Of a stretch of DNA of 64,000 nt, positions 25,773-42,831 are shown in pieces; positions within the stretch are counted from its first letter, which is position 1, and each line of letters starts with the position of its first letter. A program made the position numbers and the translations under genes. The DNA is from Apostichopus japonicus. Taxonomy: Eukaryota > Echinodermata > Holothuroidea > Aspidochirotida > Stichopodidae. Location: the NCBI RefSeq assembly GCF_037975245.1, contig NC_092568.1, forward strand, positions 36,361,001-36,425,000, read 5' to 3'. The notes under the pieces are model-generated. The model was given only the letters and a program-made list of their open reading frames with translations. It searched no databases and was not told where the DNA came from.

Positions 25773-28700
25773 TCAAAAGTCCAAATCCCAGTCGACTGTC
25801 TGCTGTTCCTGTCTTACTTCATAGCAGAGGATGGTGTCACCGGGCAAGTAGTCTAAAGGCTCCTGAAACATGACACCACACTCCATCTCCTTGGTTACCA
25901 TGGCGACATCATCTTTATGATGCTTCAAGGAATCTAGCATCCCTGGATTGAAGGGGAAAAAAATGCAAAAGTTGGAATAAATTCAGATCAGCTTTTATGC
26001 ATAGCTAGAGATAATCTAAATAGGGCGTGAACAGGTTGGAGACACAATTGGGGAAGGGAGGAAGGTTTTCCACTGCATTCTTTGATATTGATATTAGAGA
26101 CAATAGTGTCAAATAATTGCAGATAATAATATAATTTGAAAGAAATGCCCATAATATCAAATGGACATCCAGAAATAAGACATACCTTCATGTAAACTTT
26201 TATTATTTCTGAGCAATTTGAATCGTCCGTTTAGTACAAGTTGACCTTTGTTGACCCTGCAGCCAGCTACTGGGACCTTCTTCTTACCCACAGATATATC
26301 AAACGGTTGGATTACTGTCGCTTCACCTTGGAGAGAATGTAAACGTAAATATCGATCTATTACCAGTAACAGGTCAAACTTTGAAGGAGTTGAACCTACA
26401 AGTTTCTTGTATGTTGGGACAAGAATTCAAGTATTAAGTTAAAATTATAATGTGGTATGTAGATAGCCAAATAGGTTTGCATGGCCATAGCAATATAGGT
26501 CAACATGGCTATAGCCACAAAGGTTAACCTGCCACAGCCGTATGGGTCGCTGTAATTTTGCACTTCCTGCAACTTCTACTTCTTGAGATATTTTGTGAAC
26601 AATGTTTTCAGACTTTGATACGTGCTGACCTCAAATGACCTTTGACCAATACTAACAACAATCCCAACAAGTTCTACCTAAGGGAACCTACATACCAACT
26701 ATGAAATATACCCCAGTTATCCTTCTGAAGTTAGAGCTTTGACAAACTGTCACATACACACACACACATACACACGCCATCAACCATTGCATAGATTCCT
26801 TCTGCCTACGTCAAGGAATCGAAAAGCGGTAGGTAAAAATTTCTACATAACTGCATCTGTACATATCAATAATGCCATAGCCATAGACTTTGAAGATATG
26901 TCTATAGCCAACTTGGTTAAGTACATAAATGCGACATGGACAAATTTATTTTCTATTTCATCCACACTTTTCCAATTGACTACAAAATTCATTCAAAACT
27001 AGAAAATTACTTCAAAAGTGATTCTCATGCTTGGATGATACCTACCGACGACCTCCTGGACGTCCTTGGGAGGAATTCTGATGCTTAGTTCATCCTTTAA
27101 GTCTTCTACAAATTTATAGATGATACTGTGATGTTTTACAGGGACTTGATTCTCGTCTGCATACTGTTGACCTTCTCTGCTGACATCTACGTTGAAACCG
27201 TAGACGATACCTATCGTGACGAGAAATTATACCGACATGGGAAAAATAAGTTTCATATGTAAACAATAGCAAGGAAGGATTTGTGTAAATCAATGTTCTT
27301 TGCTCTTTATTTGGGGAAACCTCACCACACCCGCCCATCGGGGCATTCTTTATGAACCCACATTTACTTGTTTTTTTGATATGTCAACTGATTTTGATTC
27401 ACTCTGCCAGGCGCATAGCGAAGAGGGGGTTGGCGAAGAGGGCACCCCCCCCCTTGAGCAAATTTTGTTTTTATGTTTTTATGATATCGCTAGTACTTTC
27501 AAAATAGAAACTGCTTAGATGCAACTTACAAGGCCTGGGAAGTGCCATTTCCAGTGATTTGGGAGGCATTTTTGGCAAAAATTTTCTTGTACACTTCGCG
27601 CCAACTCATGGTGGAGCTACGCTTAGATAGTTTCCAGCGCCGAATCTACGGCTCTAATAGTTTGCCTACAGGTTCGCACCTCCCTTGGCAAATTCCTCAC
27701 TACCCGCCTGCACTGTGCAAAATAAACCCAAGTTCTTGGCGAATAGACTATCAGCGATGTCTTACACAAAATGAATCTGCAGTCATCCCTTCATGCCACA
27801 ATTTGTATAAAACTCGCATCAACACAAACCTTGAAAGCCGTGGGCCAGTTCTACGTCCTTATCTGATATCACCCCTACTCCGAACCTAAGAATCTCTAGT
27901 TTGCACTGGTGATGAGCACCGTAGGTCGACAGCACGTCAAGAATAGCTTCAACCGATCCATCGACATCACCTGAAGAGGAGAGATTGAAGGTAAGGGAGA
28001 ACAAATGCTTTAGGTATATATGTATCATTGACATATCACTTTTTCAATCATTCACCACAAATTCTGTACAAGATTTAGGACATTTGGTCAAGTATAACTA
28101 ATCTTGCAATCAATTATGTTATATTTTTGGTTTCACTTGTTTTATTAAATGCAGTTTTGTGCTACTGCTCATTCTCTACACTGCACCTGTCTGATATCAT
28201 TCCTGTCGTCCTTGAACAGCATTATCTATTCAGTATGGTTGTATTGTCTGGTTGTACTGTATGGTTGAACTGTATGGTTGTACTGTCCAGTTGTACAATA
28301 CCGTTGTACTGTACGATTGTACTGTACGATTGTACTGTACGGTTGTACCATACAGTTGTACTGTACAGTTGTACTGTCCAGTTGTACCGTACGGTTGTAC
28401 TGTCCTGTTGTACAATATGGTTGTACTGTACGGTTGTACTGTCATGTTGTACAAAATGGTTGTACTGTACGGTTGTACTGTACGGTTGTACTGTCCGGTT
28501 GTACAATATGGTTGTACTGTACGGTTGTACTGTCCGGTTGTACAATATGGTTGTACTGTACGGTTGTACTGTCATGTTGTACAAAATGGTTGTACTGTAC
28601 GGTTGTACGGTACGGTTGTACTGTCCGGTTGTACAATATGGTTGTACTGTACGGTTGTACTGTCCGGTTGTACAATATGGTTGTACTGTACGGTTGTACT

Positions 28701-31700
28701 GTCATGTTGTACAAAATGGTTGTACTGTACGGTTGTATTGTACGGTTGTACTGTCCGGTTGTACAATATGGTTGTACTGTACGGTTGTACTGTCATGTTG
28801 TACAAAATGGTTGTACTGTACGGTTGTACTGTACGGTTGTACTGTCCGGTTGTACAATATGGTTGTACTGTACGGTTGTACTGTCATGTTGTACAAAATG
28901 GTTGTACTGTACGGTTGTACTGTACGGTTGTACTGTCCGGTTGTACAATATGGTTGTACTGTACGGTTGTACTGTCCGGTTGTACAATATGGTTGTACTG
29001 TACGGTTGTACTGTCCGGTTGTACAATATGGTTGTACTGTACGGTTGTACTGTCCGGTTGTTCTGTCCGGTTGTACTGTCCGGTTGTACAATATGGTTGT
29101 ACTGTACGGTTGTACTGTCCGGTTGTACAATATGGTTGTACTGTACGGTTGTACTGTCCGGTTGTACAATATGGTTGTACTGTACGGTTGTACTGTCCGG
29201 TTGTTCTGTCCGGTTGTACTGTCCGGTTGTACAATATGGTTGTACTGTACGGTTGTACTGTCCGGTTGTTCTGTCCGGTTGTACTGTCCGGTTGTACAAT
29301 ATGGTTGTACTATACGGTTGTACTGTCCGGTTGTACTGTCCAGTTCTACCCTACAGTTGTACTGTACGGTTCTACAGTACGGTTGACAGCACGGTTGTTT
29401 GCTCACATCAAGGAAGCTTTGGCTCTGCTCATCTGGAGATACAAGTTATAACCATATGGGTTTTACAATAATTGATTTAGAAAAAGACACCAATACAATA
29501 GTATCTGGAACACATTCCCTAGAAGATGTCCAGTGTTACTCCTCCACATTTCCGGTAGTTTGATTTAAACAAACAACCATGTGTGCCATCACTTTTTCTC
29601 ATCAGCAAGTTTAGGTAGTAAATTGTAAGCACTTGTACATTCACATTGTGGGTAGCCCAAACCACACTTTGTTTCAATGTTACTTCTCATAATATAATAT
29701 TCAGTTGCATTGAAGTTATTCAATTATTTTCTTTAAATTTTGCTTTTATCCATGCTAACCATTTCATTCACTATCCCATAGCAATCCCTCCCTCAACCCT
29801 CACCCTCACCCCCCCCATCCCCTGTTCCACCACCCAGTACCTCCTAACCCTACCTCCCACTACTTGCATAAGTCAATCTCAATTAACCACCCTTGCTTAG
29901 TCAGCTACTCTTACCTTTGATGACAATGTTCAGTTCAGGATCACCACTTCTAAAGCTCTCTTTGACCCTGCTGTACCTCTCTTGCGCCCGCCTGACCCTC
30001 ACCTCTCTCCAGTTCATTGCTCTCTCCATCGCTTTCTTTGTTCTGTAAGCTAGTTGGTGTTCCTCTGCTTTCTTTGAGATAATTGTAGACTCTTCTTCTA
30101 GAGTCTGTTCCTTCTCAACCTCCTGTCTCCACTTCAAGACTTCCCTTGCTCTTTGCTGTTAAATGAAACAAGTTCAAAAAGTGTTTTGACTGAAAAGAGT
30201 TTGTAAACATTAATCTTGAGGTATAGTAGGATGAGGTGAAGGGTGGTCAATGTGGGGGGGGGGGGGGAAGGGTGGGGATAAGACTGAAAAAGAGTTTGTA
30301 AACATTCATCTTGAGGTGTAGTAGGATGAGGTGAAGGGGAAGGGTGGTCAGGGCTTTGTCTTAGTCAATTGTAGGTCTACTTTTTATAGTAATTAATTTT
30401 ACTGATAAAATTTTGTAAAAATTAATCAATTTTGTAGCTACAATTTATACAGGAAAAACAGCCCTCACAACACCAAAAAGAGCCCCCGTCACCAGTATAA
30501 CAGCCCCCTTAAAAAATTTGGTTTTGCTGAAAAGAGCCCTTGTCACCAAAAAATTATTTTGAGCCCTGAGGTGGTCAATGTTGGGGGGCGGGGATGAGAC
30601 TGAAAAAGAGTTTGTAAATGTTTACCTTAAAATTGAGGTATAGTTAGATGAAGTCAAGTGAAAGAGGGTGACGTTTGGAGGGGGGGTGGAAATATGGCTT
30701 CCAAAGTCTGTCCTGTGCATGTTTTAGATTATATGGTTGGCAGGAGTATGGTTATATATCAACCATTTCTAAGTCTATTTCTCATTTTTCTAGATTTTGG
30801 AACAAACATTGATAACGTAAATAAAACAACAATGAAGAACTCTGATTCAGGATGGATTAACTAACACAAGAAATTCGAATTCAAGATCATGGATAAGACC
30901 TTGAAAAGTGGTAGTTTAATATTGTTCCGATGATTGGTCGATTTCATGGCCGATTTCTATCGTCAGCAAAAACCCAAGGAAAGACAATGAAAACGTGAGA
31001 TAAAGAATACATGAACAAACAAACAGGTGAGTGAGAAATGGAATGAACTAAAAAATAAACTAACAATCAAGTACATACAACGAACAAACATACGATAAAA
31101 CAGTAAGGCAGATGTACTCATGTACAGGTATTTCTTTCTTAAAGCAGCATTTTGCATTTTGTCGCCGTTTTCCACTTTTTTGACAAGTCCATCAAGTTTT
31201 TTACATATATCAATCACAAAACAGCAAACTTAGATATTAACCAAGTTTTTACCTGCCAAAAGCGTTAATTGGCGAGTAATTAAGGACATTTGCAGATAAT
31301 GAGAAAAGTGTCCTCCGACAAATTACACATTTAATATTAATCGCATACAGTTCCCCTAACCCACTAGTTTGAATTCAACCAATCAGAGATGCAGGTTTAG
31401 TTATGAGATGTTGCTAAAAATAGATTCAAAATGTCGAGTTGGTAACTTGATACAACCAGCGAGCTGGACTCTAACAGCTCCCTGGTACAACTGCCATAGA
31501 CAATCTACACAAATCAATCATGGTGTTGTATTACGTATTGGCCAATTAGGATCGTAGCTTTTAAATAATCATATTATGGGCGGGGTTTATTTGGATCCCA
31601 ACGGAAAATATTTTCGAGAAAATAAAGTGGAAGGTTGTAAATTTTTCGACTTATATGCCATCATTTGAAGTAAGATTTGAATTGATAAGCCAGTTATGCA

Positions 31701-34700
31701 TGGCATCATGACATCGTGGAATCAGTGAAGTTGAGAAAAACCATAGAAAAAGGATGCAAAATGCTGCTTTAAGTAGTCTGACATACCTCTGATTCGACCT
31801 GAAGGACCACATCCCCAGCCGATGGATTCCCTTTCCAACCAGTTATCTCTACCGGTATTGACGGTCCAGCTGACTTCACCGTCTGGCCTCTCTCGTCGTG
31901 TAACGTACGTACCCTGCACATGACATCCCCAGCGACCAGTATGGCACCTTTCTCTAGGGTACCTCTCTGGATGATGGCAGTTGCTATTGATCTATCAATA
32001 AAAAATAAAAAATAAATCTTTGCTAATATTGACAAATTTTATTACCAATTGAACATTTTAGGTTTTAAAAAAATTTAGTTTTTAAATGCAAAATTCTTTC
32101 AAAACATATGCACAGAAAGCTGAAAAATTGAAAACCAAAAATTAAAAACATTTAAGTTTTTAAATTCAAAATTCTTTCAAAACATATGCACACAAAGCTG
32201 AAAAATTTAAACTTGTAGCAAAACTAGCCAAATATTGTCTGACAGAAAGCCATAATTTGCTGTTTTTGGGGCTTTTTTTTCCCCTTCGAACTTTCTTTTT
32301 TAGTTCCTGGGTGTCCTTTGCTGTATTGATAATGTCAATGCCATAAACAGAACATCAACCCAGGCCAGAGAAACGTAGATCCCTCTTTGCCCTGTCAGTT
32401 AAGTAAGATCTTAGTTTACACAGAGCTCTTGGTTTTTAACCCTTTCCTCTTCTTCTCACCTCCTCCTTCCACCCACTTCTAAGATAATACAAACTGTTCT
32501 GTACTTAGTAGTGTATTAGTGTCATGAAACAAGGGATAATGAAAATGAAAATCTGGAGAAAAAAAACAATTTTCTTTGTTCTTTTTATGAGTTTATATAT
32601 TCCAAAAGTCTTTCATAATCCCAACATGACTTTTTACTACTGATGAGAACAGTGTTTTTTTTTCACATTCAAATTCTGTCATGTAAAGACACTACGATAA
32701 AAAGTAAATATTCCTGCCAAAACACAGTGTTAAATTCAAGAGTCTCACTTTCATTTCCCCCCTCCTCCCCCCCCCCTCTTGCCGTCAACCCCGACTGTGA
32801 ACAGGGTCGAACTGGCTAATTGGCATGCAGCTGGACAAGTGGCATCAGGGGCATGCTGCCAGGTTGAGGCACAGAGTGCGCCAATGCCCTCTCGGTTGTG
32901 AGAGGTACTAGTTTCGTCTGAGGCACTACATGCGCCACTTGTATCGAGACCTCAGCACGACCGATTGCATCACTGACCCAGTAGTACCTTTGTGCCCCAT
33001 TCCATCAGTGACAGTGAAAAAAAAACAACAAGTACTGACAAAAGTCTGAAATTACCCTTTGCCTTTATCGACCCGTGATTCAACGATGACGGCTTCCACC
33101 GGTCCTGACCGGTCCGCCTTCAGCTCTTGAATCTCCGCCTGAGTGATGATGGCGTCCGTGAGGTCATCCAGATGAAGACTCTAAGGTGAAAACAGAGGTA
33201 GGTATCAAAGATATCAATTAAACAATTAAGAATCATTAACTGTAAAAACTGTAAAAAATCAGAGGAAGCATTCTAAGCTTCTGCTTTGGAAGTTTACAAG
33301 TTTTGCTGCTTACATTAGAGTAATTCTAACATGATCAAAGACGGGGGTCTAGATGACGAAATATATAACATTGATACAAAATTTATTTCTTACTCCCCAA
33401 TTTAACCTTTGCCAAATGTAATCTTACTTTACATTGTATTTGGATCTTGGTAGTTTGAAAAGGCAGTTTAGATCTCCACAACAACCCCCACCCCCCCTCA
33501 AAAGAATATTACTAGGTCTAACTCAGCCTTCCTCCACCTGCCCCCCCCACCCCAACTCTCCCTCCTCTTTTCCCATTCTGGACATTTCATGATGACTTGT
33601 CACTATGTCCACCAGTTTATCCTAAAGTCATAGGTCACAGAGAGTAAAACACTCTTGAAATGAAATTATCAAGCAAATCAATGAGCTGACTTTCATCATC
33701 AGAATGCAAAATCCAAATTTCTCTTAGAATCACTTCCCTTCTGCTTTCTTGGTCGCATAGAATATAATTGGGTTACACGATGTGCAAGATAATGTATTTT
33801 CTGACTGGAACCACCACACTCCCTGGGCCCACACCACTCTCATCCCCCCCCCCTCCCACTCCTCCAACCAAAGGAAGGAAATTGCTATACAGGGATCACC
33901 ACCAATGAAGGGCACCTTGAGGTCACTGGTTTCAATCCTGTCCTAAGCAAACATTTTCTTAGCTCTGTTCAAGATCAAAGTTGTGAGGATTACCTTGAGG
34001 GCTGATATTTCCACTGCTTGTACATTGCCACCAAATTCTTCCAAGATTATGTCATTGGATAGTAGGTCTCGTTTCGTAAAATCCTGTCGAAAGAGTGTAA
34101 ATGTTGGATGATTTTCTTTTTTTTGCAAAAACTGATGTATAGCTTTCTGCTGTTAAATTACTATGTATGTGTACCTTGTGCATAGCTTTTCTTGTTGCAT
34201 TTTTCCTCCTAGAAGGGTCAATGTAAATAAATGACAAAAATAATATTTTCAGAAATTTCTGAAATTTCATGTAATATTTTCCCATTAAATAACACAAGGC
34301 TGGTGTACTTACAGGATTATGTGTTTCATGTAATCTTTCCCCATCAATTATTTAACATGAAATAACACAAGGCTGGTGTACTTACAGGATTCTGTGTTCC
34401 ATGTAATATTTTACCATCAATTACTTAACATGAAAAAACACAAAGCTGGTGCAATTACAGGATTCTGTATTTCATGTAATATTTTCCCATCAATTATTTA
34501 ACATGAAATAACACAAGGCTGGTGTACTTACAGGATCCTGTGTGTCATGTAATATTTTCCCATCAATTTTTTAACATGAAATAACACAAGGTTGGTGTAA
34601 TTACAGAATTCTGTGTTTCATGTTATCTTTCCCCATCAATTATTTAACATGAAATAACACAAGGCTGGTGTAATTACAGGATTCTGTGTTTCATGTTATC

Positions 34701-37700
34701 TTTTCCCATCAATTATTTAACATGAAATAACACAAAGCTGGTGTTCTTACAGGATTCTGTGTTTCATGTAATATTTTCCCATCAATTATATAACATAAAA
34801 TAACACAAGGTTGGTGTAATTACAGGATTCTGTGTTTCATGTTATCTTTTCCCATCAATTATTTAACATGAAATAACACAAAGCTGGTGTTCTTACAGGA
34901 TTCTGTGTTTCATGTAATATTTTCCCATCAATTATATAACATAAAATAACACAAGTCTGGTGTACTTACAGGATCTGCATCTGGCTTGTCACATTTATTG
35001 ATTGCAACAATTAAAGGAACTAGAAACAAAAGAAGGAATGGAAAAGAGTGAATAAGAGAAAGAGAGAAAGGGAATTCACATACACAGATGCATTATGGGA
35101 TAAAAAAGAAAAAAAAATCACATTCTGAAAAGTTTGTAGAGTGAATATAAATATTCATTTATTTTATATGCATATTCATGATGGTGCTCATTGATTCATT
35201 AATATCATATGCATGTTCATGATGGTGCTCGTTGATGTACCATACATGACAACTTCAATGGTACCTAATACTGGAGCTATTCTACGTCAGCAATTAAATT
35301 TAGCAACAATAATAGTCATCTATGGAATTTTGTGTAATTTCTGTTTCTTGAAAGTCACATGCAAGAGAAAGAGAAAGGCTTGAAAGCAATTTTTTGGCAA
35401 AAAATGTCCTTTTTTGACTTTTGTTTTTCAAGCTAAGCTTTAGAGAGTTGCAAACAACCCATTTTACCAGTTCAACAGCACTGGCCAAATTCACCAAAAA
35501 GTACAGTAAAGAAGACATTTATAAGTTAGTTTTTTTTCGGGAAACAAAAGTTCCAAAGATCTCAGGTTCTTGTGTGCTATACAATTTTTTAATTGAGAAA
35601 ATTTATGAACGGAAAGTAGTGCCAAGTAACTCCACGCTGTGCACAGACCTGCCTACAGCTGTACATTGCCGAAGTTGACGACAGCTAACAAAAAAGTACT
35701 TGACCTAATTTTGACGACCTGTGACGGCAGTGCCTAGCAACAATGGTGACCCAACTCCCAAGTGACAATGATAACATAGAACATGTGACATCAAACATCT
35801 TCCAACAATGTAATGTTATACACCACGTGACATCATTGTGACTGATAGGATCAAATAACAGAATGCTCACCCATTTGAAATGAATTGTTTGCAATGGATC
35901 AAGACTCCAGGGTTTTGCACTTGTCCTATCCCAACCATCACCCCTACTCCCCCACCTCCCCCAATCACCCACCCAAAACTTGTCCCATCACTATGAAAAA
36001 CAAATCTGAACTACTGGACCCATGATGTGAACTGCACCACTAAGCATTTCCACACCAATTTTTTATCCATGAAGTTAAAGTTGAGTCTTTTGATGTCAGT
36101 TAAATTTAGAAAAATATCTTCCATCTTCCTGATAACAAACCTCTCCCACTCACCGTTGGCATTCTGTGCGTATTTAATAGATTCCTTGGTCTGTTCCATG
36201 ACACCGTCATCAGCTGCTACCACCAGTACCACAATGTCCGTGATGTTAGCGCCACGTTCCCTCATGGCTTTAAAGGCGGCATGTCCCGGTGTGTCCAGGA
36301 ATGTGATTTGCTTCCCTTGCACTTTCACTGGATAATAAAATATATATATCAAAATTCACTATAAACTTAAGAAGTGAACACCTTTTTATACAATGTAAGC
36401 AACTGTATGCATTTAGTCATCTTATTGTATGAAGTCTGTGGTTTATTACTCACATTTAAAATTGGAATGATCACACTCAGACAATATCCTGGATTTCTCA
36501 CCCATATATTACACTTTTTTTACCTACTCTTGTATGTATAATTAAACAGAACAGATTTTCTATGGAATACTGCTATTGTGTGTATTACTGAAAACCAGCA
36601 CAGAAGGATAATATAACTGTTGTGTGCATTACTTAACAGTACATAGAGTTTCCATGGAATAATACTGTTGTTACTTGTTTATTATTGCATGTATTACTAA
36701 ACAGCACAGAAAGGTATTCTATGGTCATATTACTATTGTGTGTATTACTAAACAGTACAGAGGATCCTCATAGCATATTACTGTTGTGTGTATTACTCAA
36801 CAATAAAGTGAGTGTCCATGGAATATTACTGCTGTGTGTATTACTATTAAACAATGCAAAAAGAGATTCCAAGGCATATTACTGTTGTGTGTATTACTAA
36901 ACAGTACAGAGGATCCTCAGGGCATATTACTGCTTTGTGTGTATTACTCAACAATAAAGTGAGTGTCCATGGAATATTACTGCTGTGTGTATTACTATTA
37001 AACAATGCAAAAAGAGATTCCAAGGCATATTACTGTTGTGTGTATTACTTAACAGTACAGAGGATCCTCAGGGCATATGACTGCTTTGTGTATAACTCAA
37101 CAATACAGAGTGTCCATGGAATATTACTCATGTGTAAAAGTAAGTTGGCCTGACGTTTGGATCCTAGCAGGATCTTCTTCAGAGGCTAAATGACAAGTGT
37201 CATTTAGCCTCTGAAGAAGATCCTGCTAGGATCCAAACGTCAGGCCAACTTTAATACTTTTACACATTCTCTTACACAGGCTCTTTAGTGGATAACCAGT
37301 TTGTTAACAGTTTTATTTTATTTTGAGTATTACTATTGTGTATATTTCTTAACAGTGCAGGGTATCCTCAGAGTATATGACTGTGTATTACTAAACAGTA
37401 CAGTGCAATATATTCCAAACATATTGACTACAAATTGCTAGCAACTGTAATGTGAAGGTAAAATACAAACATAACAGGTAGCAACTGCATGCCATGCACT
37501 TGGCCATTGCTTTTATCTGGGTTTATAATTCACTGTATTTTCTTATTTTGAAAATCGTGGAACTAAAAAGGATATCCAACTTTCATCGCATAATGTGAAA
37601 CATGACAGATCATGAACTATTGACAAACCTTGAAAAGCACCGATATGTTGAGTGATTCCACCAGCTTCTTGCGCTGCGACTGATGTTTTCCTTAACGAAT

Positions 37701-41642: not shown

Positions 41643-42831
41643 GCATACAAAATTGCAATCCACTAATTGGGCTGGTTATTTAAGCAAATGTGGCAGGCAG
41701 TCTTTTAACAACAAAGTCATCAAACAGAGAGCCAACCTATGATTAGAAATTTCATAATGTTTCATTTCAATATTTCATTTCATTTGTTGTTGGCAGAACT
41801 GTATAAACATGACTTTCACTTCAGAAAATAGTGCTTTCGAAGAAATTATTTTTGATATGTTGAATCAGTACACCTTCCAAGTTACTAGGTATTTTCGCCA
41901 ACATCAAGGAAAGTAGTAATCTCTTCTCGTAGTCGTACATATGAATGAAGGCCTGGGCTATCTCTACTTTACGTATATACAGTACTAACTGGCTATCTAT
42001 ACTTACTGGCTATCTCTACTTGACGTATATATACTGTACTTACTACAGGAACGGTAGGTCAAAATATTTTTCGCGAAAAGCCTCCCTATGCAAAATGCCA
42101 TACATACAGATCCTTTAACTGAAAATTAAGCTTAAGCCAATATCTCGCCTGTCATCTTGAATGACTTTAGAAAAATCAAAGAACCAACTATGGAAACAAA
42201 TAATGCACTACGAGCTCACATTATCAGTTTCGATATTTCAGTGGCCAAACTGGGAAACTATCAGCAAATAATTGGTTAATATATTTTTCTCATGCGTTGA
42301 TCAAGTCGAGGTCGTATAATTAAAAAAATAAGACCATTCCGATTCTCAGTCCATCCTGACCGCTGGTTTATCGATATGTTGGTCGAAGTTACGCTCCACG
42401 AGCCTGCGTTGTTGGATTCTCTTCTGCATGCACTCAAGAGACGACCAGTGACGTTCGAAATGTCAGTTTTTAGCCACAGAAAGTAACTTTGCGAAACAAT
42501 TTGTTCGCTGACTTAATTATAGAGCAAACGGGTCATATTTTTCTTCTTTCTTTCAAAATTTATGGCTCAATAAAATATAACGTAAGGTTGTATACATGGA
42601 TTAAACCAATAAACCACCAAAACTACTGCCCAGTTTTTATCATTTTTATGGCCAAGGCCTACAATAGCCTAACTGTTTTAGTTTAAAATATAAATTTCCC
42701 TTCTGGCACATACAATTGGACAGTTTGCGATAAATCTGGTAATTATTATATAAGTTATGAGATAGGCCTAAGCAAAAATGTCGACAGGACGGGGAACTTC
42801 CTGCGTTGATGTGCCCCCCCCCCCGCCCCTC
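41643..42831. other. No supported gene; possible MTIF2 5' region
   Basis: There is a small tandem duplication (GGCTATCTCTACTT, 41957-42040) and a CpG-richer patch at about 42350-42460 that could hold the MTIF2 promoter. No first exon can be defined. Confidence 0.3.

What the first reader, a model, noticed from the sequence alone, without database searches (positions are those of the whole stretch)
34305..34985. Tandem array that multiplies an authentic 5' splice site
The MTIF2 exon 6 donor is the first of ten donor-like sites at an exact 73-base period. Three decoys match the real donor over CCTGTAAGTAC and the others are close. Use of any decoy would add a segment with an early in-frame stop. 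The array could be a decoy cluster affecting U1 binding or splice choice, or a neutral expansion that captured the exon edge.
Basis: partly seen in the sequence, partly recalled or inferred. Interest (0 to 1): 0.75.

Follow-up and report, generated by a model that had tools for sequence, protein, structure and literature searches.

The report
Tandem repeat grown from splice site
In a genome that resembles a sea cucumber's, the spot where one exon of a mitochondrial translation gene ends has been copied ten times in a row into the intron, and similar arrays at other genes suggest that this happens repeatedly there and could show how cells pick the right splice site among look-alikes.

Summary
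The array is real. MTIF2 coding exon 6 (35019-34970, minus strand, 50 nt) ends CCT|GTAAGTAC, and this donor is copy 1 of ten at an exact 73-base step (the tenth is internally deleted). Three decoys match it from -3 to +8; two are GTAAGA and four GTAATT. Decoy use would meet a TGA after 13 codons. A genome search found the unit only here. Nothing points to a function: no excess folding, and donor columns vary no more than others. The wider point is that it is not alone. Of 25 fetched loci with AGGTAAGT arrays, 10 begin at an exon with homology or paralogy support (KRI1, serine palmitoyltransferase, a glycosyltransferase, phosphatases and others), and the unit holds about 7-54 nt of exon tail. 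SPT16 is another. Arrays at acceptors occur too (Rabin8; weaker support for tetraspanin and SDR). Whether real donors are over-represented at such arrays is unsettled (p 0.03 to 0.18 by threshold). MTIF2 thus looks like one case of a recurrent class. No RNA was available, so which donor is used is untested.

The parts
34970..35019 (-). MTIF2 coding exon 6 (50 nt), ending ...GCAGATCCT
   Evidence: gene model with AG and GT at its borders and an open frame; protein matches mitochondrial IF-2
34962..34972 (-). authentic 5' splice site CCT|GTAAGTAC (copy 1)
34283..34974 (-). 73-base tandem array, ten copies, beginning 5 nt inside exon 6 and filling most of intron 6
34524..34534 (-). decoy donor identical to the authentic one from -3 to +8 (copy 7)
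34378..34388 (-). decoy donor identical to the authentic one from -3 to +8 (copy 9)
34305..34315 (-). decoy donor identical to the authentic one from -3 to +8 (copy 10, the internally deleted copy)
34889..34899 (-). weaker decoy GTAAGA (copy 2; copy 4 at 34743-34753 is identical)
34816..34826 (-). weak decoy GTAATT (copy 3; likewise copies 5, 6 and 8)
34928..34930 (-). in-frame TGA reached by any decoy use
   Evidence: stop ends at +42
34084..34969 (-). intron 6 (886 nt); its acceptor (CGACAG, ending at 34084) lies outside the array
33994..34083 (-). coding exon 7, joined in frame through the copy-1 donor

Best explanation
A short segment straddling the exon 6/intron 6 border of MTIF2 was tandemly duplicated and then expanded, by slippage or unequal exchange, into a 73-base minisatellite. 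Each copy carries the last few exon bases plus a donor, so the real donor became copy 1 of ten. Splicing most likely keeps using the exon-proximal copy, chosen by its pairing with the exon's own acceptor across the 50-nt exon (exon definition); the other copies are removed with the intron and are nearly neutral. MTIF2 is one of a recurrent class in this genome: minisatellites founded on exon edges, at donors and at acceptors. Shown: anatomy, frame, register, and homology-supported exons at the edge of arrays in other genes. Inferred: the duplication mechanism, use of copy 1 alone, exon definition, neutrality.
For: Exact register starting inside the exon. The protein frame runs to exon 7 through copy 1, and decoy use meets a stop. 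A whole-genome DNA search found no match outside the array (the tool skips very common words). MTIF2 matches one locus, apart from one 40%-identity hit on C14. Copies 2 and 4 are identical, and copies two apart are most alike (92.4%; neighbours 89.7%), as unequal exchange would leave. Elsewhere, of 25 AGGTAAGT-array loci, 7 start at an exon with a Pfam hit under E 0.01: five over Pfam's curated cut-off (Kri1_C 7.9e-29, Aa_trans 1.2e-8, Glyco_transf_21 1.3e-10, Y_phosphatase 6.2e-10, GDA1_CD39 7.2e-7) and two under it (Y_phosphatase 0.0027, TSP1_ADAMTS 0.0063); one has a PDB hit (serine palmitoyltransferase, 1.1e-5); two are paralogs of these. SPT16 (4.2e-18) is a further case, found with AGGTGAGT. 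The unit holds about 7 to 54 nt of exon tail in the eight distinct genes, 6 in MTIF2. Arrays also adjoin the acceptors of Rabin8 (6.7e-15), tetraspanin and SDR exons.
Against: No RNA: use of copy 1 alone is not shown. In MTIF2 the copied exon part is only 5-6 nt, so birth rather than capture rests largely on the other genes. I expected acceptor-side arrays to be rare and they are not. Over-representation of real donors among array-starting sites is unsettled: 8 of 25 against 4 of 40 single sites (one-sided p 0.030), 7 of 23 without paralogs (0.045), 6 of 25 at curated cut-offs (0.12), 5 of 23 at cut-offs without paralogs (0.18). The single sites come from 2.3 Mb of one chromosome. Donor motifs are not clearly enriched in arrays: 288 against 447 for the reversed motif, 469 against 433, 402 against 250 for AGGTGAGT. 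Seven of the 25 loci showed no exon at the array start.
Confidence: 0.72

Rival explanations
1. Leaky decoys: downstream copies are sometimes used, giving transcripts with the TGA that are removed by nonsense-mediated decay, so longer arrays lower MTIF2 expression a little without a selected function.
For: Three decoys equal the donor from -3 to +8 with the same predicted U1 pairing; exon 6 is only 50 nt. In human IFI6 two downstream repeat units are reported as used donors (passage in PMC4526556).
Against: Other genes here carry far more decoys at least as strong as the donor (26 in KRI1, 34 in SPTLC1), though that sample was found by searching for perfect motifs, and I do not know that those genes are spliced normally.
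Confidence: 0.18
2. Functional decoy cluster: repeated U1 sites are kept because they tune splicing, U1 recruitment or premature polyadenylation in this intron.
For: Ten donor-like sites in one 886-nt intron.
Against: Donor columns are not conserved beyond the rest and six of nine decoys are weakened; no excess folding; no other copy of the unit was found.
Confidence: 0.06
3. Capture: an unrelated intronic minisatellite expanded up to the exon and replaced the old donor by conversion.
For: MTIF2 introns hold other arrays; 2,530 of 12,798 intronic bases lie in arrays of period 10 or more and score 80 or more; the exon part of the unit is short.
Against: At other genes the unit holds tens of bases of conserved coding sequence, which is hard to explain by capture; the D-P residues are shared with mammalian IF-2.
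Confidence: 0.08
4. Assembly artefact.
For: Tandem arrays are error-prone in general.
Against: The published assembly that fits in size was built from PacBio HiFi reads (PMC10344927, passages); copies carry distinct variants; the array spans only 692 bases.
Confidence: 0.02

Closest known systems
[quoted passage not shown] 1995; not held, seen only as a citation and one citing sentence)
   Same: A minisatellite at an exon end whose repeats supply donor sites.
   Different: The human unit is short (12 nt, recalled) and downstream repeats are reported as used donors. Here the unit is 73 nt, decoy use would bring in a stop, and use is unknown; several genes of one genome show it, at both exon edges.
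Intron gain by tandem duplication (Rogers model, ATP2A1, potato RdRp, fission yeast 24-bp duplicates; PMC4974935, abstract and introduction)
   Same: Tandem duplication in or across an exon-intron border multiplies splice signals.
   Different: In MTIF2 no intron is bounded by two copies; the array lies in one intron whose acceptor is outside it.
Intronic repeats tied to splicing: CeRep25B in C. elegans (PMC4039745) and LHX3 intron 5 in dogs (PMC3223203), abstracts only
   Same: Intronic tandem repeats near splice decisions.
   Different: The abstracts do not describe those repeats as copies of the splice site.

Membership tests
Minisatellite that multiplies an authentic splice donor (IFI6 type) | repeat unit contains a donor sequence | tested here: met
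   4 of 10 copies GTAAGT, 2 GTAAGA, 4 GTAATT
Minisatellite that multiplies an authentic splice donor (IFI6 type) | first repeat is the real exon border | tested here: met
   gene model and frame, homology
Minisatellite that multiplies an authentic splice donor (IFI6 type) | downstream repeats serve as donors in transcripts | not testable with these tools
   no RNA data
Minisatellite that multiplies an authentic splice donor (IFI6 type) | copy number varies between individuals (recalled as usual for minisatellites) | not testable with these tools
   one assembly only
Intron gain by tandem duplication | new intron bounded by splice sites lying in two copies | tested here: not met
   the acceptor, ending at 34084, lies outside the array
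Dispersed satellite or transposon-derived tandem repeat | unit found elsewhere in the genome | tested here: not met
   DNA search of the genome matched only this array; that search skips very common words
Structured RNA element | more stable than shuffled sequence | tested here: not met
   one unit z 0.11, two units z 0.17; the hairpin within the unit alone z -1.5, 42 of 500 shuffles as stable

The most novel reading that the evidence does not exclude
In this genome exon edges repeatedly seed minisatellites that carry the splice site and part of the exon into the intron, at donors and acceptors alike. For an intact protein the copy next to the exon must be used: the first transcribed at donors, the last at acceptors. 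If RNA shows that it is, simple first-come order cannot explain both sides, while pairing across the exon can. The arrays would be natural, replicated experiments on splice-site choice among near-identical sites, with MTIF2 as one small and partly decayed example.
Probability: 0.5. Interest if true: 0.65.

Novelty: new variant of a known kind. Interest (0 to 1): 0.47.

Why it matters
How the spliceosome chooses one of several equal sites is mostly studied with built reporters (general knowledge). A genome in which exon edges have been copied many times in matched context, on both sides of exons, would let RNA reads address this at native genes. It would also show one way introns grow and, if decoys are used, one way expression is lowered. 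For MTIF2 alone the array is a modest curiosity.

Tried and rejected
RNA structure hiding the decoys. The real donor was more accessible than every decoy at three of four window settings (for example 0.10 against 0.001-0.04), but not at the shortest. Ordinary intronic GTAA sites span 0.002-0.24 (5th to 95th percentile, n 68), and 9 of the 12 other real MTIF2 donors are below 0.04, so low values are no bar to use. The unit folds no better than shuffles. Left as weak.

Selection on decoys. Column +5 ties for most variable, but the donor 9-mer ranks 18th of 73 windows. No support either way.

Enrichment of donor motifs in arrays. 288 against 447 for the reversed motif, 469 against 433, 402 against 250 for AGGTGAGT. 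These count matches, which a few long arrays dominate; the reversed AGGTAAGT motif also falls in tetranucleotide repeats. Not settled.

Absence of acceptor-side arrays. I predicted it and was wrong. TTTGCAG was swamped by one dispersed family. TCTTTCAG gave 114 matches against 45 reversed. I fetched 16 of the 26 clusters printed, picking by eye those whose unit looked like an acceptor, so the 7 I judge to end at an exon are not an unbiased share; 3 have Pfam support, only Rabin8 over the curated cut-off.

Donor loci: what was sampled and dropped. The 25 AGGTAAGT loci are all but one (C5:7512445) of the 26 distinct clusters printed, each printing its first 100 places. For AGGTGAGT I fetched 6 of the clusters printed and left out five G-rich low-complexity ones and C6:2576616. 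Of the reversed-motif clusters I left out three made of tetranucleotide repeats.

Exons without database support. At L033, L036, L039, L042, L044, L048, L049 and L053 an exon looks likely from sequence only and Pfam found nothing. At L034, L035, L038, L051, L052, L054 and L055 I saw no exon at the array start. A peptide was scanned for 20 of 25 loci; L047's was too short, L057's is the same as L041's, and L038, L051 and L054 were not scanned. Of 40 single sites, 28 had a frame of 20 or more residues scanned: four hits under 0.01 (AIG1, Ldh_1_N, Fringe, Dynein_C) and a Ras-like one at 0.087. The 40 are among the first 44 non-array sites printed. Serine palmitoyltransferase came from a PDB search that I did not run for single sites. 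The seven reversed-motif arrays were scored for coding only; I saw no convincing exon, though one strand of L083 scored 10.9. Heparanase for L125 and SLC35F6 for L113 are guesses from memory; searches found nothing.

The coding score separates poorly. MTIF2 donors score 2.9 to 31 (exon 6: 4.8), intronic controls reach 6.9 and the other strand of the window 32; 7 of 25 array loci and 4 of the first 20 single sites exceed 6.9. I did not rest on it.

A pooled figure used wrong counts for the AGGTGAGT loci; one search replaces it (9 of 31 against 4 of 40, one-sided p 0.041).
Full report
OBSERVATION. MTIF2 lies on the minus strand. The model has 14 coding exons, AG and GT at the internal junctions and one open frame to a stop. 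The protein matches mitochondrial IF-2 in the PDB (best E 8.6e-191) and its G domain matches GTP_EFTU. Exon 6 is 50 nt (35019-34970). Its donor CCT|GTAAGTAC is the first of ten copies at an exact 73-base step. The array takes most of the 886-nt intron; exon 7 starts at 34083. Three decoys equal the donor from -3 to +8, two have GTAAGA, four GTAATT. Reading on past the donor meets TGA at +40 to +42. The range given, 34305-34985, is close to the 34283-34974 of TRF.

WHAT THE ARRAY IS MADE OF. The nine full copies differ from their consensus 36 times, in 21 of 73 columns; copies 2 and 4 are identical and copies two apart are most alike, as unequal exchange would leave. The unit begins with the last exon bases, ATCCT, in register in nine of ten copies. 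They encode D-P, also present in mammalian mitochondrial IF-2, so the exon sequence is probably older than the copies. A genome search matched only this array. MTIF2 matched one locus apart from a 40%-identity hit.

IS IT UNUSUAL FOR THE GENE? MTIF2 introns hold five arrays of TRF score 80 or more, 2,530 of 12,798 bases. Placed uniformly, at least one of five would touch an exon edge about one time in five. Alone, the case needs no special cause.

OTHER GENES, DONOR SIDE. Pattern searches for three AGGTAAGT in a row found many arrays. I fetched 25 of the 26 distinct clusters in the printed parts. Ten start at an exon supported by homology or paralogy: L037 (Kri1_C), L041 and L057 (Aa_trans, same peptide), L043 (Glyco_transf_21), L045 and L046 (Y_phosphatase; L046 under the curated cut-off), L047 (by likeness to L046; its own donor there reads GTAGGT), L050 (TSP1_ADAMTS, under the cut-off), L056 (GDA1_CD39), L040 (serine palmitoyltransferase by PDB). 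In the eight distinct genes the unit carries about 7 to 54 nt of exon tail. Eight more loci look likely but lack database support; at seven I saw no exon. In KRI1 26 further donors as strong as the first follow within the stretch read. In 14 of 15 tabulated cases (MTIF2, the eight, and six of the likely ones) an in-frame stop comes before the second donor found; the exception is SPTLC1. Decoy strength in this sample is partly a product of searching for perfect motifs; MTIF2 was not found that way and has 3 of 9 intact. With AGGTGAGT, six loci gave one confirmed case, SPT16 (4.2e-18), and two likely, L123 and L125.

CONTROLS. Forty single AGGTAAGT sites from the first 2.3 Mb of C1 gave four Pfam hits under 0.01, against 8 of 25 array loci (L057 counted with L041). 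One-sided Fisher p is 0.030; 0.045 without paralogs; 0.12 and 0.18 if only hits over curated cut-offs count. So it is unsettled whether arrays favour real donors. Seven reversed-motif arrays showed no convincing exon by coding score.

ACCEPTOR SIDE. I expected acceptor-side arrays to be rare. Of 16 TCTTTCAG-array loci, picked by eye from 26 printed clusters, I judge 7 to end at an exon whose first 7 to 37 nt or so are in the unit. Three have Pfam hits: RAB3A-like_C 6.7e-15 (over the cut-off), Tetraspanin 0.00046 and adh_short 0.0061 (both under it). So the class seems to cover both exon edges. For intact protein the exon-proximal copy must be used: the first at donors, the last at acceptors. 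First-come order would explain donors but not acceptors; pairing across the exon explains both. This step is inference.

FUNCTION TESTS. Folding gives no support, and the donor columns show neither unusual conservation nor unusual decay. I found no evidence that the array is a regulator.

SPECIES. The genome has 671,581,487 bases in 35 contigs; hits fall on C1 to C23, and the contig lengths I saw run from 18.2 to 43.0 Mb. The published Apostichopus japonicus assembly has 671.6 Mb, 23 chromosomes of 18.21 to 46.02 Mb and 34 scaffolds (PMC10344927, passages). The fit is close but not exact; the identification is an inference.

LITERATURE. The nearest precedent is the IFI6 minisatellite (Turri 1995), seen only through papers that cite it. 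Searches on repeats at exon-intron borders, donor sites in minisatellites, tandem duplication and sea cucumber minisatellites listed no paper that I recognised as describing such a class; I judged most from the listing. Only open-licence papers are held, so absence in print is not shown.

VERDICT. MTIF2 by itself is a small, probably neutral array. The class it seems to belong to is the point of interest.

Noticed in passing
28233-29398: Large minisatellite built on a 13-base motif (GTACGGTTGTACT) in MTIF2 intron 10.
   Followed up: no
36690-37135: Another MTIF2 intronic array (48- and 151-base periods) in intron 4.
   Followed up: no
about 37140-37245: Long, seemingly near-perfect inverted repeat in MTIF2 intron 4, read by eye.
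   Followed up: no
L126 (G000:C6:203100-204200): 72-base unit that seems to hold an acceptor, about 26 nt and a donor, as if a micro-exon were repeated in tandem.
   Followed up: no
L036: 33-base array that stays open in one frame after an exon-like stretch; it may be coding, or an in-frame multi-donor array.
   Followed up: partly
G000, many places printed: Dispersed repeat family with ...AACATTTTGCAG... units on C1 and C2.
   Followed up: no
41983-42021: Short 17-base repeat with GTAAGTA on the minus strand, upstream of the MTIF2 start codon.
   Followed up: no
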